From the IMG/VR virus record IMGVR_UViG_3300035670_000018, positions 103,364 to 167,363 of that record: 64,000 bases of DNA. One strand, given 5' to 3'. The notes beneath the pieces were generated by a model. The model was not told the origin of the DNA, did not search any database, and saw only the letters and a program-made list of their open reading frames with translations. Numbering within the stretch: the stretch's first letter is position 1; every line of letters begins with the position of its first letter. Made by a program: the position numbers and the translations under genes. Shown in pieces: positions 12,393 through 63,957 of this stretch. The stretch comes from a virus.

Positions 12393-12416
12393 GAATACAG
12401 TTTAAGAAAGACGGAA

Positions 12417-12566: not shown

Positions 12567-12581
12567 ATAGTTGCGTCCAGT

Positions 12582-12646
12582 GCATAGCAGATATGCGAAA
12601 AAAGAATAAGAAAAGACTTGAAATTGGCTGCGACAAGCACTATATT
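12582..12646 (+). promoter_or_regulatory. Early promoter module with palindrome (wider spacing)
   Basis: GCATA-GCAGA-TATGC at 12582-12596, then 21 bp instead of 11, TTGAAA (12618-12623), 17 bp, TATATT (12641-12646). The extra 10 bp is about one helical turn, keeping the palindrome on the same DNA face. Confidence 0.68.
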
Positions 12647-12652
12647 AGATAT

Positions 12653-12930
12653 GTAAGAGAGAAAAGAGTTTCCCAGCCGCGCGGGACAAGATGCGGTCGC
12701 TGTTTAACATTGTTAAGTTCCTATGAGTTACCCTTGCTCACTCAAGGGCGCACTGAGTAGCGAAATATCCAGTGAGGGACTGTGACTCAGCACAGCCTCA
12801 CATTCTATCTCTTCAGATATGCACCGGGCATTGTAGCTACTGCCTAGTGTGGCACAGTCGCGCTGCTTCGGTGGCGTTCAAGATGAACTGTTCGATTCAG
12901 TTGGTGCATATCTGAAGTGATAGAATACAT
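12653..12930 (+). ncRNA. Candidate structured non-coding RNA
   Basis: No plausible ORF. Helices readable by eye: TTAAC/GTTAA, CCCTTG/CAAGGG, CACTG/CAGTG, and GTGAGG-CTGTG with CACAG-CCTCAC. A 24-base closing stem with one mismatch pairs 12802-12825 with 12903-12926. Inside the stem is a canonical T-arm (AACTG-TTCGATT-CAGTT) and CGCTGC-TTCG-GTGGCG. Directly downstream of an early promoter module and upstream of tRNA-Asn. No known RNA family is recognised. Confidence 0.55.
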
Positions 12931-13007
12931 TCCTCTCAAGCCAACTAGGTGGAGGCAACTGACTGTTAATCAGTGTACGACAGGTTCGAATCCTGTGGGG
13001 GGAGCCA
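12931..13007 (+). tRNA. tRNA-Asn(GTT)
   Basis: Acceptor TCCTCTC pairs with GGGGGGA using G-T wobbles; anticodon arm ACTGA-CTGTTAA-TCAGT; T-arm ACAGG-TTCGAAT-CCTGT; G73-CCA. Confidence 0.9.
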
Positions 13008-13013
13008 ATTCAT

Positions 13014-13100
13014 GGACCAGTCGCCTAGTGGCTATGGCAGCAGACTCTTAATCTGTCGTGAGAAATCACATCGTGGGTTCGAGTCCCACTTGGTCCTCCA
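13014..13100 (+). tRNA. tRNA-Lys(CTT) with long variable arm
   Basis: Acceptor GGACCAG/TTGGTCC, D-arm GCC...GGC, anticodon arm GCAGA-CTCTTAA-TCTGT, T-arm GTGGG-TTCGAGT-CCCAC, T73-CCA. The 16-base variable arm contains GTGA-GAAA-TCAC, a class II feature not expected for lysine. Confidence 0.85.
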
Positions 13101-13105
13101 ATCAT

Positions 13106-13179
13106 GGCCTATTAGTGAATGGATATCACACCGCTCTGTCTAAGCGGAGAAGCGAGTTTGAGCCTCGCATAGGTCGCCA
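13106..13179 (+). tRNA. tRNA-Asp(GTC)
   Basis: Acceptor GGCCTAT/ATAGGTC, D-arm GTG...CAC, anticodon arm CCGCT-CTGTCTA-AGCGG, T-arm GCGAG-TTTGAGC-CTCGC, G73-CCA. Confidence 0.9.
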
Positions 13180-13250
13180 TTTAGTACGCCTGTCCCGCTT
13201 TGGGAAGTTGGGTAGGGTTGACGGCACCCTCGCAGTACGAAAGCCGTTAT

Positions 13251-13328
13251 CTGAGTGTACGAGAGTCTGGTTACATCCCATAGATTTGGAATCTATGAAC
13301 GCAGGTTCGAATCCTGCCACTCAGACCA
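13251..13328 (+). tRNA. tRNA-Pro(TGG)
   Basis: Acceptor CTGAGTG/CACTCAG, anticodon arm ATAGA-TTTGGAA-TCTAT, T-arm GCAGG-TTCGAAT-CCTGC, A73-CCA. The D-arm is weakly paired. The 71-base spacer before it (13180-13250) has no ORF; it contains a CCC/GGG hairpin only. Confidence 0.88.
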
Positions 13329-13333
13329 ATTAT

Positions 13334-13407
13334 ATCAGTGTAGTGTAACGGTAGCACGGCAGCCTCCAAAACTGCTTGTCAGGGTTCGAATCCTTGCACT
13401 GGTGCCA
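13334..13407 (+). tRNA. tRNA-Trp(CCA)
   Basis: Acceptor ATCAGTG/CACTGGT, D-arm GTGT...CAC, anticodon loop CTCCAAA, T-arm CAGGG-TTCGAAT-CCTTG, G73-CCA. Confidence 0.88.
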
Positions 13408-13410
13408 GTC

Positions 13411-13521
13411 AGAAAGAGCGGTAGTCGGAGTGCGAATCCGATGAGAACATGCCTGTGATCGCACACAGGCATTAAGTATCCTCACCATAGACTTCGGTCA
13501 ACATAGAGGAACGCTCTTTCT
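13411..13521 (+). ncRNA. Candidate multi-helix RNA with 10-bp closing stem
   Basis: AGAAAGAGCG (13411-13420) pairs perfectly with CGCTCTTTCT (13512-13521). Inside are TCGGA-GTGCGAA-TCCGA, ATGCCTGTG (13449-13457) with CACAGGCAT (13464-13472), CCTC/GAGG and GAC-TTCG-GTC. The 5' arm looks like a degenerate T-arm, but the order does not fit a tRNA. No T-run follows. Confidence 0.5.
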
Positions 13522-13523
13522 AC

Positions 13524-13552
13524 TTGACTTTACGTGATGCCTCGTCTATAAT
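13524..13552 (+). promoter_or_regulatory. Sigma70-type promoter
   Basis: TTGACT (13524-13529), 17 bp, TATAAT (13547-13552), directly upstream of the ORF at 13577 and the Ala/Thr tRNA genes. Confidence 0.8.
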
Positions 13553-13576
13553 AAGACAACAATCAACGAGGTAACT

Positions 13577-13792
13577 ATGGCAAAGATGACGATTAAGAAA
13601 GTGATGGAATTACAAGATCATTTCATCAAAGCTGGTATTATGAAAGACCCTAAGTCTTATACCGCAGATGAATTGAAGTATCTTAATCCTGCTATTCCAT
13701 CTGACTTCATTGATGATTATGTTGATGTTCGTGATGGTAAGAAGAAAGAAAGCGACTGGCAGCGTATTCCGCTGAAGATCGAAGATTTGTAA
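13577..13792 (+). CDS. Small hypothetical protein in tRNA array
   Basis: 71 residues, ATG preceded by GAGGTAAC. Helical N-terminus (MTIKKVMELQDHFIKAG), acidic centre. Has its own strong promoter. Function unknown. Confidence 0.65.
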   Translation: MAKMTIKKVMELQDHFIKAGIMKDPKSYTADELKYLNPAIPSDFIDDYVDVRDGKKKESDWQRIPLKIEDL

Positions 13793-13798
13793 TACAAT

Positions 13799-13873
13799 GG
13801 GCTTGTAGTATAATGGGTATTATCTCCCGCTTGCACCGGGAAGAACAGGGTTCGATTCCCTGCTTGTCCACCA
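13799..13873 (+). tRNA. tRNA-Ala(TGC)
   Basis: Acceptor GGGCTTG/CTTGTCC, anticodon arm TCCCG-CTTGCAC-CGGGA, T-arm CAGGG-TTCGATT-CCCTG, A73-CCA. Confidence 0.9.
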
Positions 13874-13881
13874 AGTTTAAC

Positions 13882-13955
13882 GCCTCTATAGTTCAATGGC
13901 AGAACGCCTGTTTTGTAATCAGGATATCAGGGTTCGATTCCTTGTCGAGGCACCA
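13882..13955 (+). tRNA. tRNA-Thr(TGT)
   Basis: Acceptor GCCTCTA/TCGAGGC, D-arm GTTC...GAAC, anticodon loop TTTGTAA, T-arm CAGGG-TTCGATT-CCTTG, A73-CCA. Confidence 0.88.
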
Positions 13956-13959
13956 GTTT

Positions 13960-14074
13960 AGCGTTGTAGGAGCAGAAGTGACCTTGTTGGGATGGTCTGC
14001 TGTATGCGGCTCACAGGCGAGTTGAGGGGTTTGATCACCCCAAGTCTGGCGAGGGTTCAATTCCCTCCAACGCT
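13960..14074 (+). ncRNA. 115-nt tRNA-like element
   Basis: Acceptor AGCGTTG/CAACGCT and a canonical T-arm GAGGG-TTCAATT-CCCTC flank a 79-base core that does not fold as D and anticodon arms. The core has AGCA/TGCT with GACC/GGTC and GGGG-TTTGATCA-CCCC. No CCA is encoded. Could be a degenerate tRNA or a tRNA-shaped regulatory RNA. Confidence 0.5.
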
Positions 14075-14110
14075 AATCTAATTTGATCTGGCTACGTAGC
14101 AGCAATGTGC

Positions 14111-14153
14111 GTCATGAATGTCAGACAGTCAACCAAATAACTGTGCGGTTGAC
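14111..14153 (+). ncRNA. Conserved inter-tRNA hairpin element, copy 1
   Basis: GTCAACC (14128-14134), loop AAATAACTGTGC, GGTTGAC (14147-14153). Preceded by GTCATGAATG. A second copy at 14293-14335 keeps the loop and upstream motif but has a different, still complementary stem. Precedes tRNA-Tyr. Confidence 0.5.
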
Positions 14154-14161
14154 ACCAGTTT

Positions 14162-14247
14162 GGGTGAGCGGCAACGACGGTGAGTTGCGGCGGACTGTAA
14201 ATCCCCTGTCTATGACTTAGAAGGTTCGAATCCTTTCTCACCCACCA
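14162..14247 (+). tRNA. tRNA-Tyr(GTA)
   Basis: Acceptor GGGTGAG/CTCACCC, anticodon loop CTGTAAA, long variable arm as usual for bacterial tyrosine, T-arm AAAGG-equivalent AGAAGG-TTCGAAT-CCTTT, A73-CCA. Confidence 0.88.
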
Positions 14248-14292
14248 AATTGATTTAGCTACTCACACAGTATGGTTACGCCATATCTTAGA

Positions 14293-14335
14293 GTCACGAA
14301 TGCTAAACAACCAGACTTAATACTGTGCTGTCTGG
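14293..14335 (+). ncRNA. Conserved inter-tRNA hairpin element, copy 2
   Basis: CCAGAC (14311-14316), loop TTAATACTGTGCT, GTCTGG (14330-14335), preceded by GTCACGAATG. Compared with copy 1, the stem has changed on both sides while the loop core CTGTGC is kept. CACAGTAT/ATACTGTG offers an alternative long-range pairing. Precedes tRNA-Ile(GAT). Confidence 0.5.
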
Positions 14336-14345
14336 ATTATTTTAT

Positions 14346-14431
14346 ACTACCTTATCCAAGTGGTTGAAGGAAGGCGGCCGATAACCGTCTGGCGAAAGCC
14401 CGCGTTTGTTCGAATCAAACAGGTAGTACCA
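14346..14431 (+). tRNA. tRNA-Ile(GAT), class II body, C33
   Basis: Acceptor ACTACCT/AGGTAGT, anticodon arm GGCGG-CCGATAA-CCGTC, T-arm GTTTG-TTCGAAT-CAAAC, A73-CCA. Two oddities: position 33 is C instead of the near-universal T, and a long variable arm (GGC-GAAA-GCC) is present, unlike normal isoleucine tRNAs. Confidence 0.75.
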
Positions 14432-14434
14432 TTT

Positions 14435-14507
14435 CCTGTGCTTGCAATCTCTCAGTTAAAAGCTGTTGCAAGATTAAGTGTTATGTCTAATATGACATAG
14501 ACACAGG
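14435..14507 (+). ncRNA. Three-helix structured spacer
   Basis: Closing stem CCTGTG (14435-14440) with CACAGG (14502-14507); inside CTTGCAA/TTGCAAG and TATGTC/GACATA. Lies between tRNA-Ile(GAT) and the end of the minus-strand collar gene, so it may separate convergent transcripts. Confidence 0.45.
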
Positions 14508-14509
14508 AT

Positions 14510-14794
14510 CTATTCTCTTGAAGGATAAAGACCTTCAACCACCATATGTGGTACAAGTTCGTCATCATGCCATTCGCGTCTGACTTTCTTGCCATAGTCT
14601 GGTCCAGAATCAACGAATGGTCTTAAGTCTGGTAGTGCGAAAGTGTGAATACCATCGCCACCCCAACGGGTGCCCAGTAGAGAGAACAAAGGTTCATGAT
14701 GTTGAATTTCTAATATCTGCCCGCGACATACCACAGTGTCTCTTGTGTTCCAAGTAAAAGGCAGATAAACAACTTGACTAATATAAGCTTCCAT
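14510..14794 (-). CDS. Phage tail collar domain protein
   Basis: 94 residues from MEAYI; chosen over an upstream ATG because GGAG sits 6-7 bases before it. Contains LFSLLGTRWGGDGIHTFALP, the signature of the tail collar domain found in tail fibres and microcystin-dependent-protein relatives. Much shorter than complete collar proteins, so possibly a small fibre-tip or decoration protein. Encoded against all surrounding genes, with its own late-type box upstream. Confidence 0.85.
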   Translation of the reverse strand: MEAYISQVVYLPFTWNTRDTVVCRGQILEIQHHEPLFSLLGTRWGGDGIHTFALPDLRPFVDSGPDYGKKVRREWHDDELVPHMVVEGLYPSRE

Positions 14795-14823
14795 GGTATA
14801 CTCCATTATATGAGTTGACATGG

Positions 14824-14830
14824 TATTTAG
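14824..14830 (-). promoter_or_regulatory. Minus-strand late promoter box
   Basis: TATTTAG on the plus strand is CTAAATA on the minus strand, about 30 bases upstream of the collar-gene ATG. A late promoter suits a virion gene. Confidence 0.65.
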
Positions 14831-14834
14831 TTAT

Positions 14835-14908
14835 TGGGAGATCATCTAAAGGTAGGATAGCGGTCTTTGAAACCGCCGATCTTGGTTCGATTCCAAGTCT
14901 CCCAGCCA
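14835..14908 (+). tRNA. tRNA-Gln(TTG)
   Basis: Acceptor TGGGAGA/TCTCCCA, anticodon arm GCGGT-CTTTGAA-ACCGC, T-arm CTTGG-TTCGATT-CCAAG, G73-CCA. Confidence 0.9.
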
Positions 14909-14960
14909 ATTCGTGCTTGCATAGCATATAGTCAATAGATGTAGCCGCACTACAATAGAC

Positions 14961-15044
14961 GGACTGGTTACCGTAGTGGCGAACGGCGCTGACTTTTAAT
15001 CAGCTATGCAAACACCGTGGGTTCGAGTCCCACCCAGTCCTCCA
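14961..15044 (+). tRNA. tRNA-Lys(TTT)
   Basis: Acceptor GGACTGG/CCAGTCC, anticodon arm GCTGA-CTTTTAA-TCAGC, about 12-base variable region, T-arm GTGGG-TTCGAGT-CCCAC, T73-CCA. Shares acceptor and T-arm features with tRNA-Lys(CTT). Confidence 0.88.
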
Positions 15045-15049
15045 ATTAT

Positions 15050-15124
15050 GGCGCATTAGTTTAGTGGTCAGAATACTGGGCTTTCAATCCGGGGAGAAGG
15101 GTTCAATTCCCTTATGCGCTGCCA
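15050..15124 (+). tRNA. tRNA-Glu(TTC)
   Basis: Acceptor GGCGCAT/ATGCGCT, anticodon loop CTTTCAA, T-arm AAGGG-TTCAATT-CCCTT, G73-CCA. Confidence 0.88.
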
Positions 15125-15129
15125 AATAT

Positions 15130-15207
15130 TGCGGGATAGAGCAGTCAGGTCAGCTTGCTAGGTTCATATCCTAGAGGTCGCAGGTTCGAATCCTGCTCCC
15201 GCTTCCA
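15130..15207 (+). tRNA. Initiator-like tRNA-fMet(CAT)
   Basis: Acceptor TGCGGGA/TCCCGCT leaves T1-T72 unpaired, the hallmark of a bacterial initiator. The D-arm region GAGCAGTCAGGTCAGCT resembles fMet. The anticodon arm CTAGG-TTCATAT-CCTAG lacks the three consecutive G-C pairs usual for initiators. T-arm GCAGG-TTCGAAT-CCTGC, T73-CCA. Confidence 0.78.
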
Positions 15208-15208
15208 T

Positions 15209-15283
15209 GCTGCATTAGTCTAGTGGTTAAGACGCAGGTCTGTGAAACCTGTTACGGCGGTTCGATTCCTCCATGCAGTACCA
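15209..15283 (+). tRNA. tRNA-His(GTG)
   Basis: Acceptor GCTGCAT/ATGCAGT, anticodon arm CAGGT-CTGTGAA-ACCTG, T-arm GGCGG-TTCGATT-CCTCC with one mismatch, A73-CCA. The 5' G opposite T72 may serve as the extra histidine G. Confidence 0.87.
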
Positions 15284-15288
15284 TTTAT

Positions 15289-15362
15289 TGCCCGGTCGTC
15301 TAACGGTAGGACGCCAGATTCTGACTCTGGCTATCGTGGTTCGAATCCATGCTGGGCAGCCA
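15289..15362 (+). tRNA. tRNA-Gln(CTG)
   Basis: Acceptor TGCCCGG/CTGGGCA, anticodon arm CCAGA-TTCTGAC-TCTGG, canonical T-loop TTCGAAT, G73-CCA. Second glutamine isoacceptor. Confidence 0.88.
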
Positions 15363-15366
15363 ATAT

Positions 15367-15441
15367 GGGGTAATGGTGAAATGGGAACACCGTGGTCTGC
15401 AAAACCATTATGAGTAGGTTCGATTCCTACTTACCCCTCCA
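15367..15441 (+). tRNA. tRNA-Cys(GCA)
   Basis: Acceptor GGGGTAA/TTACCCC, anticodon arm GTGGT-CTGCAAA-ACCAT, T-arm GTAGG-TTCGATT-CCTAC, T73-CCA. Confidence 0.9.
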
Positions 15442-15447
15442 AACTAT

Positions 15448-15541
15448 GCATCCGTATCCCCCTTGGCTACGAACCAAGAGTAAGGTAACTGGAGATGGTC
15501 AGAGATGACTAATGCAGGTTCGAATCCTGTCGGATGCTCCA
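15448..15541 (+). tRNA. tRNA-Arg(ACG), D-arm missing
   Basis: Acceptor GCATCCG/CGGATGC, T73-CCA, T-arm GCAGG-TTCGAAT-CCTGT. The anticodon arm CTTGG-CTACGAA-CCAAG follows the acceptor after only seven bases (TATCCCC). About 35 bases then separate it from the T-arm, including GGTAACTGGAG (shared with tRNA-Arg(TCT)) and a GTCA-GAGA-TGAC hairpin. Confidence 0.7.
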
Positions 15542-15557
15542 CTAAAGGAAAACAACA

Positions 15558-15920
15558 ATGAAACTATTAATAGCAGCCTTTGCTGCCCTATTTTTAATGA
15601 CAGCACCCAGTAATGCTACAACAATGGTAGCATCATGGTATGATTGTGTTAAGCCTGGTGAATGTAGTAAACATAAGATTACTGCAAGCGGGCAAAAATT
15701 CAATCCAAATGCTTTAACAGCAGCACACAAGACATTGCCTTTCGGCACAAGACTGAGAGTTACACACAAAGGAAGATCGGTAATAGTAGTAATTAATGAT
15801 AGGGGCCCGTTCATTAGAGGCAGACATTTAGACCTATCAAGAGCAGCAGCAAGAAAGATTGGCTGCGGTGGAGTTTGCACAGTCAAGGTTGAAATCTTAG
15901 GAAAGAAGAAGAAAAGATAG
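15558..15920 (+). CDS. RlpA-like double-psi beta-barrel protein, exported
   Basis: 120 residues. Signal peptide about residues 1-20 (LLIAAFAALFLMTAPSNA). Then an RlpA-type barrel: VASWYD, ASGQKFNPNALTAAHKTLP, FGTRLRV, VVINDRGPF and HLDLSRAAA. RlpA proteins bind or cleave denuded peptidoglycan in the periplasm. The C-terminus is basic (GKKKKR). AAAGGA precedes the ATG. Placed between tRNA genes, far from the lysis genes at 36 kb. Could modify the wall during infection. Confidence 0.85.
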   Translation: MKLLIAAFAALFLMTAPSNATTMVASWYDCVKPGECSKHKITASGQKFNPNALTAAHKTLPFGTRLRVTHKGRSVIVVINDRGPFIRGRHLDLSRAAARKIGCGGVCTVKVEILGKKKKR

Positions 15921-15922
15921 AC

Positions 15923-15951
15923 TTGACAACATGTGGGATTTAGTCTAATAT
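15923..15951 (+). promoter_or_regulatory. Sigma70-type promoter
   Basis: TTGACA (15923-15928), 17 bp, TAATAT (15946-15951). Transcribes the structured leader 15952-16081, tRNA-Ser(TGA) and following genes. Confidence 0.78.
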
Positions 15952-16081
15952 ATACATCGTGGCGGTAAGTAATGCGTTCCGTCATCCCGCAGCTAGAGGT
16001 TTGTGAGTGGACTGTTGACTGGAAACTCTCATTAACACAATAGTGGAGGCCGTAACCACTTTAAGAAATCGGAGCGAAATT
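15952..16081 (+). other. Non-coding structured leader of tRNA-Ser(TGA)
   Basis: 130 bases without an ORF. TTGTG/CACAA encloses an inner GAG/CTC helix, and AGTGG-AGGCCGTAA-CCACT forms a hairpin just before the tRNA. Possibly a processed leader. Confidence 0.4.
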
Positions 16082-16169
16082 GGATAGGTGGCAGAGTGGT
16101 CTATCGCATCGGTCTTGAAAACCGAAGTACCTTCGGGTACCGTAGGTTCGAATCCTACCCTATCCGCCA
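16082..16169 (+). tRNA. tRNA-Ser(TGA)
   Basis: Acceptor GGATAGG/CCTATCC, anticodon arm TCGGT-CTTGAAA-ACCGA, class II variable arm GTACC-TTCG-GGTAC, T-arm GTAGG-TTCGAAT-CCTAC, G73-CCA. Confidence 0.92.
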
Positions 16170-16186
16170 AACAAGAGGAAGATACA

Positions 16187-16333
16187 ATGAGTAAAGATTG
16201 TGGTTGTGGAAGAAGTCCGACTGGTAAGTGTATCGGTTGGCATGGGTTGACAAATGAACAATACTCTGCTAAACTACAAGAATACGAAAAGAAGAACTTG
16301 ACGGAATCAGCTCCTCAGTTGCTTCGTGATTGA
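16187..16333 (+). CDS. Small CxC..C..H protein, CDGSH-like
   Basis: 48 residues from ATG 16187 with GAGGAAGA upstream. CGCGRSPTGKCIGWH resembles the CDGSH iron-sulfur motif (CxC-x2-S...C-x2-x-H) but has one residue fewer between Ser and the third Cys. May bind a 2Fe-2S cluster or zinc. Similar mini-proteins occur in other phages, as far as I recall. Confidence 0.6.
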   Translation: MSKDCGCGRSPTGKCIGWHGLTNEQYSAKLQEYEKKNLTESAPQLLRD

Positions 16334-16339
16334 ATAAAC

Positions 16340-16415
16340 GCTGCCTTGGTATAGCTGGTGCGTACATGCGCCTGAAGAGCGTGGGGACTCTGTTCGATTC
16401 AGAGAGGCAGCACCA
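16340..16415 (+). tRNA. tRNA-Phe(GAA)
   Basis: Acceptor GCTGCCT/AGGCAGC, anticodon arm TGCGC-CTGAAGA-GCGTG, T-arm CTCTG-TTCGATT-CAGAG, A73-CCA. Position 37 is G rather than A. Confidence 0.85.
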
Positions 16416-16429
16416 TTTAGAGAGTTAAT

Positions 16430-16585
16430 ATGAAACTTAAAACTTGGTGGAAACATGCTGTGTTCCATTATGACATTCTAAAGGTGGATGATACTTGTGT
16501 TGATTACCTTAAGATGGTAACATTCTGGCATCCCGAATACAAAGAGTATCAGACAACAGTAAGTCATGTTTCAAACATAGAATAA
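16430..16585 (+). CDS. Small hypothetical protein
   Basis: 51 residues between tRNA-Phe and a homing endonuclease; GAG before the ATG is a weak ribosome site. Aromatic-rich (TWWKHAVFHYDIL). Unknown function. Confidence 0.5.
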   Translation: MKLKTWWKHAVFHYDILKVDDTCVDYLKMVTFWHPEYKEYQTTVSHVSNIE

Positions 16586-16628
16586 TGCGTCTTGGGAGGT
16601 GATGGTCACCTCACCGCTCTCTGAAATA

Positions 16629-16635
16629 CTAAATA
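16629..16635 (+). promoter_or_regulatory. Late box directly at a homing endonuclease start
   Basis: CTAAATA lies only five bases (GTAGT) before the ATG at 16641. A transcript from it would have essentially no leader. An upstream hairpin GAGGTGA-TGG-TCACCTC (16596-16612) precedes it. The same CTAAATAGTAG-N-ATG arrangement occurs at 61924. Confidence 0.55.
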
Positions 16636-16640
16636 GTAGT

Positions 16641-17213
16641 ATGAGATACACCATTTACAAAACGACTAATACAGTCAACGGCAAATACTACATTGGTAAA
16701 CATCAAACCATTGATCCAATGGATAACTATCTGGGTTCAGGTAAGGCTATTGCTAATGCCATAAAACTACACGGTAAAGATTCTTTTGTGAAAGAAGTTC
16801 TGTTTGATTTTGATACAGAAGAGGAAATGAACAGTAAAGAGCGTGAACTTATTACTGAAGATATCGTAAACGATCCGATGTCTTACAATTTAGGTGTCGG
16901 TGGAGAAGGCGGTCCTCACTTCAGTGGAAGAAAACATACAGACGAAACGCGAAAAAAACAGAAAAACGCAAATACAGGTCGTGTCTATGATTACGATAAG
17001 TATAGCGAAGAAAGAAAAAAGACCTTCTTTACTGAAGGCAATGAATACTGGAAGAAAAGAAAAAAGAACTTTCATACGGAAGAGAGCAAACAAAAGATTC
17101 GAGAAAAAAGGTTATTACAACCAACACCGAATTTAGGGCGCAAAATGTCTGAGGAACAAAAAGAAAAGATTCGTCAGACGCTTCTAAAGCGAAACAAGAA
17201 TATGCCTGTGTAG
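16641..17213 (+). CDS. GIY-YIG homing endonuclease
   Basis: 191 residues from ATG 16641. N-terminal RYTIYKTTNTVNGKYYIGKH carries the GIY-YIG core; GSGKAIANAIKLHG and ERELITEDIV continue the domain. NUMOD3-like repeats (FSGRKHTDETRKKQ, LGRKMSEEQKEKIRQT) form the DNA-binding tail. In-frame GTG/ATG at 16599/16602 would add a segment unlike the family. The last nine bases lie inside the next tRNA gene. Confidence 0.9.
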   Translation: MRYTIYKTTNTVNGKYYIGKHQTIDPMDNYLGSGKAIANAIKLHGKDSFVKEVLFDFDTEEEMNSKERELITEDIVNDPMSYNLGVGGEGGPHFSGRKHTDETRKKQKNANTGRVYDYDKYSEERKKTFFTEGNEYWKKRKKNFHTEESKQKIREKRLLQPTPNLGRKMSEEQKEKIRQTLLKRNKNMPV

Positions 17214-17278
17214 TTCATTGATAGAACATGCGTCTCATAAGCGCAATGTAGGTGGTTTGATTCCACCCACAGGCACCA
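17205..17278 (+). tRNA. tRNA-Met or tRNA-Ile2 (CAT)
   Basis: Acceptor GCCTGTG/CACAGGC, D-arm GTTC...GAAC, anticodon arm TGCGT-CTCATAA-GCGCA, T-arm GGTGG-TTTGATT-CCACC, A73-CCA. The 5' end overlaps the stop codon of the homing endonuclease. Third CAT tRNA, so one may be the AUA-reading Ile form. Confidence 0.87.
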
Positions 17279-17502
17279 AATAAATAGAATGCTAACTCCG
17301 ACGGGAGTTGGCCGAGTGCAAGGAAATGACTGCTCACCAGGAGCGGTTAACTTGGCTAGATGGTGTGGTGCCCGTGCGCGACTGACGAGAGTCAGAGGCG
17401 TATCGTCTCCGACCAAGAGAATCTAGGCTGACACGTGGCAGATACAAGGTATCTTGGTCGTGTCTTGTGGGTGTACCCCAGTCCCACCTCACCTTATTAA
17501 AT
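17279..17502 (+). other. Non-coding structured region with late-type box
   Basis: AATAAATA at 17279-17286, then AACTCC-GACG-GGAGTT, CTGAC-GAGA-GTCAG and GATAC-AAG-GTATC hairpins. Contains a Ser-like D-arm string (GGCCGAGTG) but no T-arm, so no tRNA is called. No ORF is supported. Confidence 0.4.
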
Positions 17503-17576
17503 GCGGGTTTGTTGTAGTGGTAGCGAACTACCTTGCCATGGTAGAAGCGCGGGTTCGATTCCCGCATCCCGCTCCA
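17503..17576 (+). tRNA. tRNA-Gly(GCC)
   Basis: Acceptor GCGGGTT/ATCCCGC with one T-T mismatch, anticodon arm CTACC-TTGCCAT-GGTAG, T-arm GCGGG-TTCGATT-CCCGC, T73-CCA. Confidence 0.87.
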
Positions 17577-17591
17577 ATCATAAATACCAAT

Positions 17592-17768
17592 ATGCTAACT
17601 ATTCTATTTGTATTTTTGTTGTTGGGAACAGAAGTTCTTGCTTTCCTTATCATGATAGTGGTGTTAACATATGAAAAGATGTTTCCTAAAGAAGAACAGA
17701 AAAACAATATATTCTATGATGATAAGATGATAAATATTGATGACCAATCAAGGTCAAACACGAGGTAA
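17592..17768 (+). CDS. Small membrane protein
   Basis: 58 residues; one hydrophobic helix (about residues 2-28, LFVFLLLGTEVLAFLIMIVV) and an acidic cytoplasmic tail. CATAAATA (17579-17586) just upstream may be a late promoter. No clear ribosome site. Confidence 0.5.
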   Translation: MLTILFVFLLLGTEVLAFLIMIVVLTYEKMFPKEEQKNNIFYDDKMINIDDQSRSNTR

Positions 17769-17772
17769 GAAT

Positions 17773-17946
17773 ATGTTGAACACAGTTGTTGTTTTGGTTC
17801 TTGTTGCTGTTGTACTATGGGTCGGTTGGACTCTTTGGCAGAACGGCTGGGATGTAAAGAAGGCAGGTGCTGCTCTTGTAGCTGCGGCCGCTGCTGCTTG
17901 GCTCTGGATATCAGATTCGATTACATCTCTAACCGCAGGCATGTAA
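17773..17946 (+). CDS. Small membrane protein
   Basis: 57 residues, GAGGTAAG before the ATG. Two hydrophobic segments (VVVLVLVAVVLWVGW and an Ala-rich one near residues 33-45). Follows another small membrane protein; a holin-like or exclusion role is conceivable but unsupported. Confidence 0.55.
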   Translation: MLNTVVVLVLVAVVLWVGWTLWQNGWDVKKAGAALVAAAAAAWLWISDSITSLTAGM

Positions 17947-18057
17947 TCTAGAAACCGCTCTTGGCCCGTAGCGGTATAGAAGTCTTCTGGGTAAGTCGTG
18001 CAAATGCTAATTCCAAATTATCAGGTTGCAGGACAAGCTAACGGGCTTCCAATTCAA
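17947..18057 (+). other. Non-coding spacer with long-range pairing
   Basis: ACCGCT/AGCGGT hairpin; GGCCCGTAGC can alternatively pair with GCTAACGGGC (18037-18046) with one bulge. No ORF. Precedes tRNA-Val. Confidence 0.35.
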
Positions 18058-18132
18058 GCTTCTTTCGCCAAATGGGAAGGCATCGGTTTTACACACCGAC
18101 ATGACAAGGTTCGATTCCTTGAAGAAGCACCA
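18058..18132 (+). tRNA. tRNA-Val(TAC)
   Basis: Acceptor GCTTCTT/AAGAAGC, D-arm GCC...GGC, anticodon arm TCGGT-TTTACAC-ACCGA, T-arm CAAGG-TTCGATT-CCTTG, A73-CCA. Confidence 0.9.
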
Positions 18133-18137
18133 TTAAT

Positions 18138-18219
18138 GCGAGTATGGTGAAATGGCAGACACACTTGCCTTAGAAGCAAGCGCGAAAGCATGGGGGTTCA
18201 AGTCCCTCTACTCGCACCA
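18138..18219 (+). tRNA. tRNA-Leu(TAG)
   Basis: Acceptor GCGAGTA/TACTCGC, anticodon arm CTTGC-CTTAGAA-GCAAG, variable arm with GC-GAAA-GC, T-loop TTCAAGT, A73-CCA. Unlike the other two leucine tRNAs here, it has a longer variable region. Confidence 0.88.
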
Positions 18220-18225
18220 ATCACT

Positions 18226-18299
18226 GCCTCTATAGTTCAAAGGCAGAACACGGCTTTGGTAAAGCCGAAACACAGGATCGTTACCTGTTAGAGGCACCA
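18226..18299 (+). tRNA. tRNA-Thr(GGT) with exchanged T-loop bases
   Basis: Acceptor GCCTCTA/TAGAGGC, anticodon arm CGGCT-TTGGTAA-AGCCG, A73-CCA. The T-stem ACAGG/CCTGT is intact but the loop is ATCGTTA instead of TTCGATT: T54 is A and A58 is T, as in the tRNA-like gene at 12171. Confidence 0.82.
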
Positions 18300-18314
18300 T
18301 TTAGGAACTTAACA

Positions 18315-18812
18315 ATGATCAGAAAGAATATGGATTTAGACGAAGTTCGTGCATTCATCCAAGCACAATCTCCCGAAACAAAGATTTATCTAGGTGGCGA
18401 CTCTGAACGCTTTCAGTTGAATGGTGTATGGATGGCTGACTACATCAACGTTGTCGTTGTTCATAAGAACGGCAAGAACGGTTGTCGTGTGTTCGGTTCT
18501 GTTGTGCGTGAGCGTGACTATGACCAGCAGAAGGACAAGCCACGTATGCGTCTCATGAATGAAGTAATGAAGACTGCACAGCTTTACCTTGATCTGGAAG
18601 AAGCTATCGGTGAACGTGACTTTGAAATTCATCTGGACATCAATCCTGACTTGAAACACGGCTCATCTTGTGTTATAAATGAAGCTGTTGGTTACATTCG
18701 TGGTATGTGTAATGTGGTACCGCTAGTGAAGCCAAATGCTTGGGCAGCATCTTACTGTGCTGACAGGTACAAGGACGCTATTCAACATATTCCACAAGTG
18801 AAGGTAGGATAA
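18315..18812 (+). CDS. RNase H-like fold protein (YkuK/DUF458 type)
   Basis: 165 residues. IYLGGDSERF gives the first acidic residue; HLDINPDLKHGSSCVINEA gives the second and the conserved NEAVGYIRG; CADRYKD near the end could be the last. The pattern fits the YkuK-like RNase H-fold family, known in bacteria and T4-like phages. Nuclease activity is plausible but undemonstrated. Its place between tRNA genes allows a role in RNA processing (inference). Confidence 0.72.
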   Translation: MIRKNMDLDEVRAFIQAQSPETKIYLGGDSERFQLNGVWMADYINVVVVHKNGKNGCRVFGSVVRERDYDQQKDKPRMRLMNEVMKTAQLYLDLEEAIGERDFEIHLDINPDLKHGSSCVINEAVGYIRGMCNVVPLVKPNAWAASYCADRYKDAIQHIPQVKVG

Positions 18813-18816
18813 AATT

Positions 18817-19266
18817 ATGACTAAGTTTTTTGTTATGTTGGCAGTGATGGCTGCTGCAATCTTTATGCTTGCTACTGGCACTAGAGCAGGAGTTGAACCT
18901 CTTGGTGAGCATGAAGTGATTATTAGGATTGACAAGTCCGATCAGAAGATGTACGTAGAAACGCCTACTGATTATTTTGAGTGGGATGTTTCTACTGGTC
19001 GTAAGGGTTATCGTACTCCTGTTGGCGTGTTTCAGCCCTATCTTTTGAGACCGATGCATTACTCAAGCAAGTATAATAACGCGCCGATGCCTCATTCAAT
19101 TTTCTTTCATGGTGGTTATGCAATTCATGCGACAACAGAAGTAAAGAAGCTTGGTCAACCCGCATCACATGGATGTATTCGTCTTAGCCCTCAGAATGCT
19201 CGTTGGTTGTATCGCATCGTAAACGAGTACGGCAAGTATAATACATATATAGAGATTACAGAATAA
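18817..19266 (+). CDS. L,D-transpeptidase (YkuD domain), exported
   Basis: 149 residues with a signal peptide (about residues 1-24, ending GTRAG). YkuD domain: RTPVGVFQPY, FFHGGYAIHA and catalytic SHGCIRLSP with Cys120. Such enzymes make 3-3 peptidoglycan cross-links or attach proteins to the wall in the periplasm. A phage-encoded copy might strengthen or alter the wall against superinfection or early lysis. Nearly complete relative to single-domain family members. Confidence 0.9.
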   Translation: MTKFFVMLAVMAAAIFMLATGTRAGVEPLGEHEVIIRIDKSDQKMYVETPTDYFEWDVSTGRKGYRTPVGVFQPYLLRPMHYSSKYNNAPMPHSIFFHGGYAIHATTEVKKLGQPASHGCIRLSPQNARWLYRIVNEYGKYNTYIEITE

Positions 19267-19270
19267 TATA

Positions 19271-19361
19271 GGAAGGATGGCCGAGAGGCCGAAGGCACCT
19301 CACTGCTAACGAGGCGTACCCTAATCAGGTACCGTGGGTTCGAATCCCACTCCTTCCGCCA
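19271..19361 (+). tRNA. tRNA-Ser(GCT)
   Basis: Acceptor GGAAGGA/TCCTTCC, anticodon loop CTGCTAA, class II variable arm GGTACC-type (GTACC/GGTAC), T-arm GTGGG-TTCGAAT-CCCAC, G73-CCA. Last tRNA of the array. Confidence 0.92.
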
Positions 19362-47308: not shown

Positions 47309-47491
47309 ATGAAGTATCGGATCTTTCTCGTTGAATCGGAACGTGGTTGGGGCCAAGATTACTGGCATGAAGATTACGATACTTACAGCGCCGCGAAAGA
47401 ACGTATTCGTTCTGTTAATGCAAAGAATACTGCTTCACGTGCCCCCGATTGGTATATGCAAGCTGAAGATAGGATTGAGTGTGTAGAATGA
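47309..47491 (+). CDS. Small hypothetical protein
   Basis: 60 residues, ATG preceded by AGGACAGGA. Acidic and aromatic-rich. ATGA overlap with the phosphatase gene. Confidence 0.55.
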   Translation: MKYRIFLVESERGWGQDYWHEDYDTYSAAKERIRSVNAKNTASRAPDWYMQAEDRIECVE

Positions 47492-47934
47492 ACAAGGTAA
47501 TCGTTTTTGACATTGATGGCACTCTTGCGAACATTGAGCATCGGCGTGCCTTTGTCGCTACGAAGCCAAAGAACTGGAAGGCATTCAATGCCGGTATCGT
47601 CAATGATACTCCGCATGAGGACATTGTTGATTTGCTGAATATGTTCAGGAGTCATCCAGATTATCATCGAATCATTCTTTGTTCTGGACGCGGTGAGGAG
47701 CATCGTAAGGAAACTGAGGATCAGATGTGGAAGTTTGGTGTGAAGTATGCCCAACTCTACATGCGGCCTGCGAAGGATCATCGACCTGATTACATTGTGA
47801 AGGTCGAACTGCTTCAGCAGATCCGCAAGGAACATGGTGAACCCAAGTTCTGGTTCGATGATCGCAAGCAGGTTGTTGATGCAATCCGTGCTGAAGGTGT
47901 TCGTGTTCTTCAAGTGGCTCCGGGAGATTTCTGA
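47488..47934 (+). CDS. HAD phosphatase, polynucleotide 3'-phosphatase-like
   Basis: 148 residues from ATG 47488. VIVFDIDGTLANIEHRR supplies D8 and D10; IILCSGRGEEHR, YMRPAKDHRPDYIVK and FWFDDRKQVVDA are the later HAD motifs. This matches the phosphatase half of T4 polynucleotide kinase/phosphatase. The kinase half is encoded separately at 49716, with the RNA ligase between them. Confidence 0.82.
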   Translation: MNKVIVFDIDGTLANIEHRRAFVATKPKNWKAFNAGIVNDTPHEDIVDLLNMFRSHPDYHRIILCSGRGEEHRKETEDQMWKFGVKYAQLYMRPAKDHRPDYIVKVELLQQIRKEHGEPKFWFDDRKQVVDAIRAEGVRVLQVAPGDF

Positions 47935-48191: not shown

Positions 48192-48773
48192 ATGAACTAC
48201 GAATTTCCAAACATATCACATATAGATGACGTTCTGTGGGCAATCAAGGACTCTCCTGAGTTTATTGTTGCTGAGAAGGAAGGATATACTGTTCTAAACT
48301 ATGTCGTGGCAACTCACGATACTTTTCCTGCTGGTGATATTCATCGGCGTGAGTGTCGTGGACTAATCTTCGATTCTGAAACTGGAAAGATCACTCGTAG
48401 ACCTCTTCACAAGTTTCATAACATTGGAGAAAAAGAAGAGACTGCTGTTGAGAACTTAGACTTTTCTAAGTCACACAAGATTTTTGAAAAGTTGGATGGC
48501 AGCATGATTGCTCCGTTTGAGATAGGCATAGGTTCTGGTGTTATTCGTTTCGGCACCAAGATGGGCGTCACTGATGTTTCCATGCAGGCCGAAGTGTTTG
48601 TTGCCGAGAATCCACGCTACATGGATTTTTCTAAGTGGTGTATCTCTAATGAGATTACTCCTATCTTTGAGTGGGTAAGTAATCAGCAGCGTATTGTTCT
48701 TGACTATCCTGAGGATAATCTCATATTGATTGCTGCCCGTCATATGATAACAGGTGAGTATATTCGCCTATAG
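48192..48773 (+). CDS. RNA ligase 1 (Rnl1-like), N-terminal part
   Basis: 193 residues from ATG 48192 (AAGGA upstream). Covalent nucleotidyltransferase motif I is FEKLDGS with Lys100, matching T4 Rnl1 Lys99. IFEWVSNQQRIVLDYPEDNL corresponds to motif III/IIIa. The frame ends at TAG 48771 after ITGEYIRL, before motifs IV and V, which lie in the next ORF in another frame. Confidence 0.82.
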   Translation: MNYEFPNISHIDDVLWAIKDSPEFIVAEKEGYTVLNYVVATHDTFPAGDIHRRECRGLIFDSETGKITRRPLHKFHNIGEKEETAVENLDFSKSHKIFEKLDGSMIAPFEIGIGSGVIRFGTKMGVTDVSMQAEVFVAENPRYMDFSKWCISNEITPIFEWVSNQQRIVLDYPEDNLILIAARHMITGEYIRL

Positions 48774-48783
48774 GAATAAGAAT

Positions 48784-49377
48784 ATGGAAAACACTGATTT
48801 TTTTGATATGTTGAAGCACCACAACATTCCTGTTGTGAATGCTTACGACATTAATTCATCCAAGCATCCGTCTTACATAGTGGATATCGTTCGTCAAGCG
48901 GAAGACTTTGAGGGTGTTGTAATCTGCTGGGAAGATGGTTATCGCGTAAAATGTAAGTCGGATTGGTATGTGCGTATTCACAAGGTCAAGTCTCTGCTTG
49001 GGCAGGAGCGTGACGTTACCGCTTTGATCCTCAACAATGAACTGGACGACTTGCTTCCTGTTCTTCCTAAGGAAGACGTTGAGCGAGTGGAAAAGTTCCG
49101 TGATAAGTTAGAGGAAAAAATTGAAACGAATGCGAGAATGTGGAGTGTGACTATTCAGCATCTTCGCAACAAGATGGATAGGAAGACATTTGCTATCAAC
49201 AATGCTCATGCTTGGCATCCATTGATTCGTGGTATGATCTTTTCCTTCTGGGACAAGGAAGTCAACGAACACTTGACTTATCAGGCCATTGTTGCTATGA
49301 TACTCAAGCATTGTGGTAACAACGGTTCCTACGCAAAGGTCAAGGAAGCGTTTCTAAAGGATGTTGATTATGTCTAA
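48784..49377 (+). CDS. RNA ligase 1 (Rnl1-like), C-terminal part
   Basis: 197 residues from ATG 48784 with AGGA eight bases upstream. FEGVVICWEDGYRVKCKSDWY holds motifs IV (EGVV) and V (K-x-K) missing from the upstream ORF. The rest fits the Rnl1-specific helical C-terminal domain. The open frame extends back to a GTG at 48754, overlapping the N-terminal ORF. Either a separately translated subunit, a frameshift product or a mutation. Confidence 0.78.
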   Translation: MENTDFFDMLKHHNIPVVNAYDINSSKHPSYIVDIVRQAEDFEGVVICWEDGYRVKCKSDWYVRIHKVKSLLGQERDVTALILNNELDDLLPVLPKEDVERVEKFRDKLEEKIETNARMWSVTIQHLRNKMDRKTFAINNAHAWHPLIRGMIFSFWDKEVNEHLTYQAIVAMILKHCGNNGSYAKVKEAFLKDVDYV

Positions 49378-49726
49378 CTATCATGAAAACTTCTCTAACT
49401 GGGAAGATGTTCAGCGTGAGTTCCAAATGAACGAACAGGAACCTGAGGAAGTATTGTTCGCAATGTATGATACTCCCGACTATGAGGGATATGCAGAGGT
49501 TGTTTATCGTAATGGTAACAAGTTCTACTGGGTATCTGGATCTCATTGTTCCTGCTACGGCTTGGAAGATCAATGGGAACCTGAACAGTATGATGCGAAC
49601 ACTTTCTTGAAGGTGTTTGATCGCAATCATCGTTGGACTGTTGGCAGATACTTTGATGAGGCAACTCAACTTCGTATCAGATCGCGTGTCCAAGACTTTG
49701 TGGAGAACCCTTACAATGGCGCATAA
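49370..49726 (+). CDS. Hypothetical protein
   Basis: 118 residues from ATG 49370, overlapping the ligase end by eight bases. Acidic, with SGSHCSCYGLEDQWEPEQYD as a distinctive segment common to small phage proteins. Function unknown. Confidence 0.62.
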   Translation: MSNYHENFSNWEDVQREFQMNEQEPEEVLFAMYDTPDYEGYAEVVYRNGNKFYWVSGSHCSCYGLEDQWEPEQYDANTFLKVFDRNHRWTVGRYFDEATQLRIRSRVQDFVENPYNGA

Positions 49727-50192
49727 GCCTACACTCTACATGCTTGTCGGAGTCCCTGGCTCCGGCAAGTCTACTTGGATCGCCGAGAACTTTCCTGATC
49801 TGACTGGTTGTTATGTTGCGTCTACGGATCGCTTGATTGAAATCTATGCTATCATGCGTGGCGCAACTTATGATGATATGTTCAAGGACAACATCAAGTA
49901 TGCTGAGAAGGCAATGCTTACGCATGTCAAGGATGCTGTAATGTATGGATATAACATCATCTGGGATCAGACCAATCTCAATCGCAAGTCTCGCGCACGA
50001 AAGCTTGCTGCGGTACCTAACACTTATCGCAAGATTGGTATATTCTTTCCAACTCCTGAAACTGGAGAACTGTATCGTCGGCTTGGTTCTCGTCCTGGCA
50101 AGACCATTCCTCCATACATCATTGATGGAATGGTTGAGATGGTTGAACAGCCTAAGATTGTTGAAGGCTTTGATGAGGTTCGTGTTGTCTAG
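49716..50192 (+). CDS. P-loop kinase, polynucleotide 5'-kinase-like
   Basis: 158 residues from ATG 49716. Walker A GVPGSGKS at residues 12-19, then DRLIEIYA and IIWDQTNLNRKSRARKL, typical of the T4 Pnk kinase/AAA_33 family. With the HAD phosphatase and Rnl1 it would heal and seal cleaved RNA ends, as in T4 defence against tRNA-cutting anticodon nucleases. Confidence 0.82.
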   Translation: MAHKPTLYMLVGVPGSGKSTWIAENFPDLTGCYVASTDRLIEIYAIMRGATYDDMFKDNIKYAEKAMLTHVKDAVMYGYNIIWDQTNLNRKSRARKLAAVPNTYRKIGIFFPTPETGELYRRLGSRPGKTIPPYIIDGMVEMVEQPKIVEGFDEVRVV

Positions 50193-62273: not shown

Positions 62274-62984
62274 ATGTCTAAGAAACCAAAGAACAAGACT
62301 AGACAACCAGAAGCACAAAAGCAGGCTGCTCATTTTGAGTTAAGACACATCAAGCCGCTTACACCAAATCAGGAGAAAGCATTCAATGCGTATCGACAAG
62401 GTTACCACCTCATGCTCCACGGTTTTGCTGGAACAGGCAAAACATTCTGTGCCCTCTATCTTGCTCTAAATGAAATCTTGACAGGCAACTCAATATACAA
62501 TAAAATAATCATTGTGCGTTCAGTTGTACCTTCCAGAGACATGGGATTTCTTCCTGGTTCTATGAAAGAAAAAGCTGCTGTGTATGAAGAACCATACCGC
62601 GAGATTTGTGATAGTCTCTTTGGGCGTGGCGATGGATATGATATACTGAAGATGAAAGGTATTGTTCAGTTTACGACAACATCATTCTTGCGTGGTATCA
62701 CATTCAATAACGCAATCGTGATACTGGATGAAAGTCAGAACTTGTCATTCCAAGAAGCAGACACAGTAATGACTCGTATGGGTGATGAGAGCCGCATCAT
62801 TGTATGTGGTGACTTCAGACAGACAGACTTGGTAAAGCCACATGAGCGTGAAGGCATCACTCAGCTTATGGCAATCACCAAGCGAATAAATACTTTTCAT
62901 CATGTAGATTTCCAGAAAGAGGACATTGTGCGTTCTGGTCTGGTCAAGTCATACATCATCCAAAAGGACGCAATGGGGCTATGA
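62274..62984 (+). CDS. phoH: PhoH-like ATPase
   Basis: 236 residues from ATG 62274 with AAAGGAG upstream. Walker A GFAGTGKT at 50-57, then IIIVRSVVPSRDMGFLPG, TTSFLRGITFNNAIVILDES (Walker B) and MTRMGDESRIIVCGDFRQTDL. Typical phage PhoH; proposed roles in RNA metabolism or phosphate stress are unproven. The longer ORF from 62187 crosses a terminator. Confidence 0.9.
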   Translation: MSKKPKNKTRQPEAQKQAAHFELRHIKPLTPNQEKAFNAYRQGYHLMLHGFAGTGKTFCALYLALNEILTGNSIYNKIIIVRSVVPSRDMGFLPGSMKEKAAVYEEPYREICDSLFGRGDGYDILKMKGIVQFTTTSFLRGITFNNAIVILDESQNLSFQEADTVMTRMGDESRIIVCGDFRQTDLVKPHEREGITQLMAITKRINTFHHVDFQKEDIVRSGLVKSYIIQKDAMGL

Positions 62985-63814
62985 AGACATTCAAACAATA
63001 TCTAGAAGAGCAGTTATGGTCTGCTATCAAACTACCAGACGGTACAATCAAGAGAGGAAAGTTCCCTCATTCATCTCATGAAGAGATCCGCGATAAGCAT
63101 GGACTTGAGATTACAAAAGATCACAAGATGGGGTTTGTTATGGTCAAGGACGGCAAGAAGACATTCATGGATCGTTCTGAAGCTGCAAAGCATATCGGTC
63201 GACAAACTGACAGAGCAGACAGCACACACTTGAAACCACGCGACCAGATCAATCGTGATGATGATCCTTTTGCAGGAAGTTATGCATCGCCCGACCAGAT
63301 CAAATCAAATGTTTTAGCGATGAGAAAGTTTGGCACAATCCTCAAAGAAGGTAATCCTCTCTCGCGTATGAGAAGTCTTGAAAAAGAAGGTAGACACTTC
63401 ATTGCCATCTCAACTGAAAGACCAGGCTTGTCAAAGAAAGAAGTCTCGGCAAGAAATCAGAAACTTGTTTCTATGGCAAGAGAAGCTGGCTTTGGTGTTC
63501 GTAAGGCTGAAGGACGATACGAAGGTAGCAAAGAATCCTCACATATCATTCATGCTAAAGAACCTGGTCGTGAAGCTGGTGCAGAACTTGTAGCTTTTGG
63601 TCGTAAAGCAGGCAAACACTTTGATCAAGATTCTGTCTTGCATCATAATGGTAAAACTGCTAGACTAATAGGTACAAACACAACCGGTTTTCCGGGAATG
63701 GATAAGTCAGAAAAAGTTGGTGGTAAACTCAAATACAACAACCCTGAGTCGCCATTTCAAACTGAACTCAGACCTTCAAAGAAAAGATCACCAGCAAGAT
63801 TTACTACGGAGTGA
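62981..63814 (+). CDS. Packaged-type protein with DUF3293-like segment
   Basis: 277 residues. N-terminus MKTFKQYLEEQLWSAIKL resembles T4 capsid-targeting sequences. FIAISTERPGLSKKEVSARN, followed by a Gly-containing strand, ESSHIIHAKE and FDQDSVLHHN, has the look of DUF3293-type domains. Basic C-terminus. ATGA overlap with phoH. Confidence 0.6.
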   Translation: MKTFKQYLEEQLWSAIKLPDGTIKRGKFPHSSHEEIRDKHGLEITKDHKMGFVMVKDGKKTFMDRSEAAKHIGRQTDRADSTHLKPRDQINRDDDPFAGSYASPDQIKSNVLAMRKFGTILKEGNPLSRMRSLEKEGRHFIAISTERPGLSKKEVSARNQKLVSMAREAGFGVRKAEGRYEGSKESSHIIHAKEPGREAGAELVAFGRKAGKHFDQDSVLHHNGKTARLIGTNTTGFPGMDKSEKVGGKLKYNNPESPFQTELRPSKKRSPARFTTE

Positions 63815-63816
63815 GT

Positions 63817-63957
63817 ATGAGTTACAGTAAAGAGTGTTTAGATTACATAAAAGAATGTTTAGTCAAAGAAGATCGTAAGCCTATTGGCATGTATGGAACG
63901 TGGGCATATTATGCTGCAAAGAAAAAAGAGCACGAGAAAAACAAATGCCAAGATTAG
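63817..63957 (+). CDS. Small hypothetical protein
   Basis: 46 residues, Lys/Tyr-rich (WAYYAAKKKEHEKNK), two Cys in repeated DYIKECL-like segments. Overlaps the next gene by 13 bases. Unknown function. Confidence 0.48.
   Translation: MSYSKECLDYIKECLVKEDRKPIGMYGTWAYYAAKKKEHEKNKCQD

What the first reader, a model, noticed from the sequence alone, without database searches (positions are those of the whole stretch)
48192..49377. RNA ligase 1 split between its catalytic motifs
Motifs I (Lys100) and III are in one ORF; motifs IV and V and the C-terminal domain are in the next, in the +1 frame. All motifs look intact and the second ORF has its own AGGA and ATG, so decay is not obvious. Either the two halves assemble into a split ligase, or ribosomes shift near CGC CTA TAG, or it is a sequencing or recent mutation. 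A split nucleotidyltransferase domain would be novel for Rnl1.
Basis: partly seen in the sequence, partly recalled or inferred. Interest (0 to 1): 0.7.

Follow-up and report, generated by a model that had tools for sequence, protein, structure and literature searches.

The report
Split RNA ligase, homing-endonuclease scar
This phage makes its RNA-repair ligase as two separate proteins, most likely because a selfish gene-cutting element once landed inside the ligase gene and was later lost; the same break has happened repeatedly in related phages, and both halves still look functional.

Summary
The split is real. Rnl1 motifs I and III lie in 48192-48773; motifs IV, V and the C-terminal domain lie in 48784-49377, with its own AGGA and ATG, +1 frame, 10-nt gap. 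It is not a sequencing error. An independent contig (IMGVR 3300019776_000139, L019) has the same two proteins with the same ends (..TGEYIRL*, MENTDFF..), separated by about 745 bp carrying an antisense GIY-YIG homing endonuclease. Sixteen distinct contigs, the window included, are split at this site, needing about 9 state changes on the ligase tree (8 forced). Thirteen carry antisense inserts (GIY-YIG or HNH; one unclear). Two are clean endonuclease-free splits (window, L110); one insert has decayed (L168). All nucleotidyltransferase motifs are intact in all 16, and the window record holds no other Rnl1 or Rnl2. Window and L019 are about 95% identical only around the split and 66-74% in neighbouring genes, like a co-conversion tract. 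Best reading: a homing endonuclease split rnl1, spread by recombination and was lost, leaving a two-polypeptide ligase that probably assembles non-covalently. The kind is known (Aeh1 nrdA, T4 39/60, phage 25 gp43); the site in Rnl1, its recurrence and its persistence without the endonuclease appear new.

The parts
48192..48773 (+). Rnl1 N-half, 193 aa: motifs I (K100), Ia and III; ends TGEYIRL*
48784..49377 (+). Rnl1 C-half, 197 aa: motifs IV and V and the C-terminal domain; starts MENTDFF
48774..48783 (+). 10-nt intercistronic gap; in L019 about 745 bp with an antisense GIY-YIG endonuclease sits here
48772..48775 (+). AGGA, probable Shine-Dalgarno of the C-half, 8 nt before ATG 48784 (overlaps the N-half stop)
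   Evidence: function inferred
48249..49068 (.). tract nearly identical to L019 on both sides of the split (about 95-97% in its centre) against 66-74% nucleotide identity in flanking genes; read as a co-conversion tract
48721..48765 (-). antisense frame reading EYTHLLSYDGQQSI*, matching the end of the L019 endonuclease (EYTHLLSYDEQQSI*), whose gene overlaps the N-half 3' end
   Evidence: not independent evidence, because the same DNA encodes the N-half
47485..47934 (+). PNKP-type 3'-phosphatase, separate ORF, same RNA-repair cluster
49716..50192 (+). P-loop kinase-like ORF (AAA_33; PHROG polynucleotide kinase), separate ORF, same cluster

Best explanation
The two ORFs are the halves of a T4 Rnl1-type RNA ligase gene split by a homing-endonuclease insertion just after the codons for the conserved TGEY motif. 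Step 1 (inferred from the relatives): an antisense endonuclease cassette entered this site and gave the 3' part its own start codon and, in most cases, its own sigma70-like promoter. Step 2 (supported by the mosaic): the split allele passed between phage lineages by recombination, as homing does, carrying its flanks along. Step 3 (inferred): in the window lineage the endonuclease was lost, leaving a compact two-cistron ligase with a 10-nt gap. Step 4 (inferred from selection, conservation and precedent, not shown): the two polypeptides are co-translated and assemble non-covalently into a working ligase, because the break lies in a loop between a beta strand and a helix and no core segment is missing. 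Its likely job, with the adjacent PNKP phosphatase and kinase ORFs, is repair of broken tRNA during infection.
For: (1) Sister contig L019 has the identical split, with an antisense GIY-YIG endonuclease between the halves. (2) Sixteen distinct contigs are split at the same site. Thirteen have an antisense ORF in the gap: GIY-YIG or HNH types in twelve, less clear in L109. Eleven were checked for overlap, and in all eleven the antisense ORF ends inside the N-half 3' end. (3) Intact and split genes interleave on the tree: 9 changes, 8 forced. (4) Split without endonuclease in the window and L110; decayed insert of about 400 nt in L168/L169. (5) Mosaic: third-position identity 0.86 (N) and 0.94 (start of C) against 0.43-0.59 in neighbouring genes. 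(6) Purifying selection since the shared split: N-half 25 synonymous versus 3 non-synonymous changes, omega 0.03. (7) Motifs I, Ia, III, IV and V intact in 16 of 16. (8) No other Rnl1 or Rnl2 in the 167-kb record. (9) In the model of an intact relative (L020, pLDDT 92.8) the split falls in the loop between strand 176-184 and helix 193-203. (10) No intron RNA at gathering threshold. (11) Precedent: split Aeh1 NrdA is active and phage 25 43A/43B co-purify (PMC2988022).
Against: No biochemistry or proteomics. The C-terminal domain evolves faster between window and L019 (omega 0.38; intact pairs 0.03-0.31), so some relaxation there is possible. T4 rnlA is dispensable in ordinary hosts (general knowledge), so a weakly active ligase might be tolerated. 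The order 'insertion, then loss of the endonuclease' is inferred; a split that preceded endonuclease entry is not excluded.
Confidence: 0.77

Rival explanations
1. Programmed +1 frameshifting near CGC CTA TAG fuses the halves into one protein.
For: The C-half frame is open back to 48751, so the frames overlap by about 20 nt.
Against: In L019 the C-half frame opens only at 1923, far beyond the N-half stop at 1195, with an antisense gene between, yet the same halves are conserved. The C-half has its own ATG and Shine-Dalgarno sequence in both.
Confidence: 0.03
2. Sequencing or assembly error, or a recent inactivating mutation in one genome.
For: A 1-nt shift could look like this, and some metagenomic contigs do show isolated frame breaks elsewhere in Rnl1 (L125, L137, L194, L230).
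Against: The same split with conserved ends occurs in an independent contig at 95% local identity, and at the same site in 14 further distinct contigs.
Confidence: 0.02
3. Decaying pseudogene: the insertion killed the ligase and the halves are relics.
For: Faster change in the C-terminal domain (omega 0.38); Rnl1 can be dispensable (general knowledge).
Against: omega 0.03 in the N-half and 0.12 in the first 72 codons of the C-half since the shared split. Motifs intact in 16 of 16. One split-only clade (L043, L092, L109, L110, L168) has diverged to about 56-62% identity between some members with open frames.
Confidence: 0.12
4. The genes were split first by another event, and endonucleases later settled in the ready-made gap.
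For: Endonucleases also occupy intergenic sites; for gp43 of phage 25 the same ambiguity is noted in PMC2988022.
Against: Thirteen of 16 splits carry an insert at the site, one carries a decayed one, and the insert supplies a promoter-like site for the C-half in nine. Both clean splits have an endonuclease-bearing split gene as nearest relative.
Confidence: 0.15
5. A split intein or group I/II intron joins the halves at protein or RNA level.
For: Fractured genes with split inteins occur in the same gene elsewhere: L214 has one in Rnl1 motif I.
Against: The N-half ends only a few residues after TGEY with no intein sequence; no intron RNA at gathering threshold in the inserts; the window gap is 10 nt.
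Confidence: 0.02

Closest known systems
Aeromonas phage Aeh1 nrdA split by HNH endonuclease mobE (PMC2988022)
   Same: Free-standing homing endonuclease splits an enzyme gene with no intron or intein; two polypeptides give a functional enzyme
   Different: Different enzyme; here the endonucleases of the relatives are antisense, the split recurs in many lineages, and the window has lost the endonuclease
T4 topoisomerase 39/60 (mobA) and Aeromonas phage 25 DNA polymerase 43A/43B (PMC2988022)
   Same: Phage enzyme made as two polypeptides at a seg/mob insertion; split forms seen with and without a neighbouring endonuclease
   Different: Different genes; recurrence at one site across lineages with different nuclease classes was not described in the passages read
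Acinetobacter phage 133 rnlA-A/rnlA-B (HM114315)
   Same: Rnl1 split around a hypothetical ORF with a weak homing-endonuclease match
   Different: Split near residue 87-92, before motif I, with the ORF on the sense strand; the whole motif I-V set stays in one half
Fractured genes with split inteins (Dassa et al. 2009, seen here only as a citation in PMC10448857)
   Same: Host gene in two ORFs around an endonuclease ORF
   Different: No intein here; the halves cannot be spliced into one chain
T4 RNA ligase 1 (2c5u, 5tt6, 9do4)
   Same: Same motifs and best-matching fold
   Different: Single chain in T4

Membership tests
T4 Rnl1 (RnlA) RNA ligase | Nucleotidyltransferase motifs I, Ia, III, IV and V | tested here: met
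   all present across the two ORFs and in all 16 split contigs
T4 Rnl1 (RnlA) RNA ligase | Rnl1-specific C-terminal domain | tested here: met
   PHROG 562 positions 209-368 at 1.6e-28; PF20819 only 22.1 bits, below its cut-off of 27; phmmer to 2c5u residues 206-324
T4 Rnl1 (RnlA) RNA ligase | One polypeptide | tested here: not met
   two ORFs, +1 frame, 10-nt gap
T4 Rnl1 (RnlA) RNA ligase | RNA ligase activity | not testable with these tools
   needs a ligation assay
Homing-endonuclease-split phage genes (Aeh1 nrdA type) | Endonuclease gene between the halves | tested here: not met
   absent in the window (10-nt gap); present in sister contig L019 and 12 other contigs as an antisense ORF. So the window is filed as a derivative, not a full member
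Homing-endonuclease-split phage genes (Aeh1 nrdA type) | Intact alleles in relatives at the same site | tested here: met
   L033, L020, L096 and many others intact
Homing-endonuclease-split phage genes (Aeh1 nrdA type) | Co-conversion tract around the site | tested here: met
   window versus L019
Homing-endonuclease-split phage genes (Aeh1 nrdA type) | Endonuclease cuts the intact allele | not testable with these tools
   needs a cleavage assay
Fractured gene with split intein | N- and C-intein at the break | tested here: not met
   N-half ends RL* after TGEYI; C-half starts in Rnl1 sequence
Group I/II intron-interrupted gene | Intron RNA between the exons | tested here: not met
   10-nt gap in the window; no Rfam gathering-threshold hit in 16 related loci

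The most novel reading that the evidence does not exclude
The TGEY codons of phage rnl1 are a fission hot spot. Different antisense endonucleases (GIY-YIG and HNH, some sharing a C-terminal tail that may read the target site) repeatedly convert Rnl1 into a two-subunit enzyme, partly by supplying a new promoter for the second half. The two-subunit state is stable enough to outlive the endonuclease, which would make this a natural, repeatedly tested permissive split site inside a nucleotidyltransferase domain.
Probability: 0.55. Interest if true: 0.68.

Novelty: new variant of a known kind. Interest (0 to 1): 0.57.

Why it matters
It shows one enzyme being split in the same loop many times over, with stages from loaded (endonuclease present) through decayed to clean. 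That gives a natural series for asking how selfish insertions become permanent two-subunit enzymes. It also points to a ready-made split site in Rnl1, a widely used reagent, and perhaps in covalent nucleotidyltransferases in general.

Tried and rejected
Frameshift fusion: rejected because the halves are about 745 bp apart in L019. Sequencing error: rejected for the same reason plus 14 further contigs. Intron: no Rfam hit. Intein at this site: no intein sequence. A second intact ligase as backup: none found in the record. Search of cultured phages with a joined N+C query (an artificial query made of the L043 N-half and the L006 C-half, for search only): all 60 listed records matched in one piece; 1618 further records were not listed, so this is not exhaustive. 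Endonuclease remnant inside the L168 gap: only chance-level matches, so calling that insert 'decayed' rests on position and size. L125, L137, L194 and L230 show breaks elsewhere that look like isolated frame errors and were not counted; L256 was not followed. Exact TATAAATA late-promoter sites are not enriched in the window.

Full report
Observation. The window carries an Rnl1 RNA ligase in two ORFs, 48192-48773 and 48784-49377, +1 frame, with a 10-nt gap. Family searches put the N-terminal part of the family in the first and the rest in the second. Against T4 Rnl1 the first half matches residues 29-191 and the second 206-324, so no core segment is lost. The record is a 167-kb T4-like phage with a gp23-type capsid gene and has no other Rnl1- or Rnl2-type ligase.

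The decisive comparison. A scan of viral contigs with each half found the same contig, IMGVR_UViG_3300019776_000139 (L005/L019), with N-half 94% and C-half 80% identical. There the N-half ends at the same ..TGEYIRL*, written with different codons and a different stop. The C-half starts at the same MENTDFF. Between them lie about 745 bp with an antisense GIY-YIG endonuclease (PHROG homing endonuclease, 3e-41; SegE-type GIY-YIG). This disposes of sequencing error and of frameshifting.

The split is recurrent. A scan with an alignment of N-halves and scans with three further N-halves, checked with a full-length Rnl1 profile, gave 16 distinct contigs split at the same place: window, L019, L006, L025, L026, L029, L035, L039, L042, L043, L052, L092, L109, L110, L168 and L216. 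Duplicate records of the same sequences are not counted. Many relatives are intact, including the nearest ones, L033, L020 and L096. On a tree of 118 ligases, split versus intact needs 9 changes, 8 of them forced by well supported branches. The quick tree method and gene-internal recombination make the exact number soft.

The inserts. Thirteen contigs have an antisense ORF of roughly 200-330 residues in the gap. In the eleven checked for overlap, it ends inside the last codons of the N-half. GIY-YIG types (L019, L035, L039, L042, L052, L216, and L026 by sequence) and HNH types (L006, L025, L043, L092, and L029 by sequence similarity) occur. The L109 insert has no clear nuclease hit. A C-terminal tail is shared by six GIY-YIG proteins and also matches the HNH protein of L025 (28 bits); I infer that it may read the target site, but this is untested. 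In nine of the longer cassettes a sigma70-like promoter precedes the C-half, against about one expected by chance. A TAAATA box, resembling a T4 late promoter, lies on the opposite strand in the same nine. Related cassettes are not independent, so this is suggestive.

Loss of the endonuclease. The window and L110 have no insert. In L110 the C-half ATG overlaps the N-half stop, and a GGAG in the TGEY codons can serve as its Shine-Dalgarno sequence. L168/L169 have about 400 nt between the halves without an endonuclease ORF. L110 and L168 belong to a clade of five split genes (with L043, L092 and L109), some pairs of which are only about 56-62% identical, so the split state is old there and outlives its likely cause.

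Horizontal spread. Window and L019 share 95-97% identity over most of about 250 codons around the split, but only 66-74% in the phosphatase, kinase and metallophosphatase genes. Third-position identity is 0.86 and 0.94 next to the split and 0.43-0.59 in those genes. Low synonymous divergence restricted to the flanks of the insertion site is what homing with co-conversion predicts.

Function. Since the shared split the N-half shows 25 synonymous and 3 non-synonymous changes (omega 0.03), and the first 72 codons of the C-half omega 0.12. The C-terminal domain is looser (0.38; intact pairs 0.03-0.31). All motifs are intact in all 16 split contigs. In a confident model of intact L020 (pLDDT 92.8; best solved matches T4 Rnl1 2c5u, 5tt6 and 9do4) the break lies in the loop between strand 176-184 and helix 193-203. 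The published precedents, Aeh1 NrdA and phage 25 gp43, work as two polypeptides (PMC2988022). I therefore read the pair as a working two-subunit ligase. Assembly and activity are inferred, not shown.

What is known and what is new. Endonuclease-split phage genes are a known kind, and a split rnlA is annotated in Acinetobacter phage 133, at another site. I found no paper on an Rnl1 split at this site among those searched, and no such split among the 60 best cultured-phage records listed. The new points are the site between motifs III and IV, its recurrence with different endonucleases, and its persistence without them.

Noticed in passing
L214:2845-5449 (IMGVR_UViG_3300003375_000053): Rnl1 interrupted inside motif I (KLDG|S) by intein-like sequence in two pieces, with an antisense 303-aa ORF (DUF7487) between: apparently a fractured gene with a split intein at a second Rnl1 site.
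   Followed up: partly
L006:3466-4149: IMPDH/GMP-reductase C-part that begins with a C-intein-like stretch (..NINGVIVHN|S), on the same contig as a split Rnl1.
   Followed up: no
window 12008-19361: 27 tRNA genes, with a GIY-YIG endonuclease ORF (16599-17213, 46% identical over 109 residues to the L019 endonuclease) inside the cluster, like T4 segB.
   Followed up: partly
G000:C1:64041-64307, just after the gp23-like gene (62817-63926): A GIY-YIG ORF directly downstream of the capsid gene, a position like that of T4 segD; another GIY-YIG lies at window about 4090-4380.
   Followed up: no
window 47485-47934 and 49716-50192: PNKP phosphatase and P-loop kinase-like domains are separate ORFs on either side of the split ligase, unlike the single T4 PseT protein; separate ORFs also seem present in DSS3P8.
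   Followed up: partly
window 49361-49726: 121-aa ORF (PHROG 8792) sits between the C-half and the kinase; in L019 the kinase ORF starts at the equivalent ATG, so this gene is an insertion or deletion difference between the two phages.
   Followed up: no
L019:1862-1875 and L006:6403-6416: GGGA-loop-TCCC hairpins that are reverse complements of each other (GGGATTGCCGTCCC, GGGACGGCAATCCC) between endonuclease and C-half; possible endonuclease leader hairpin.
   Followed up: no
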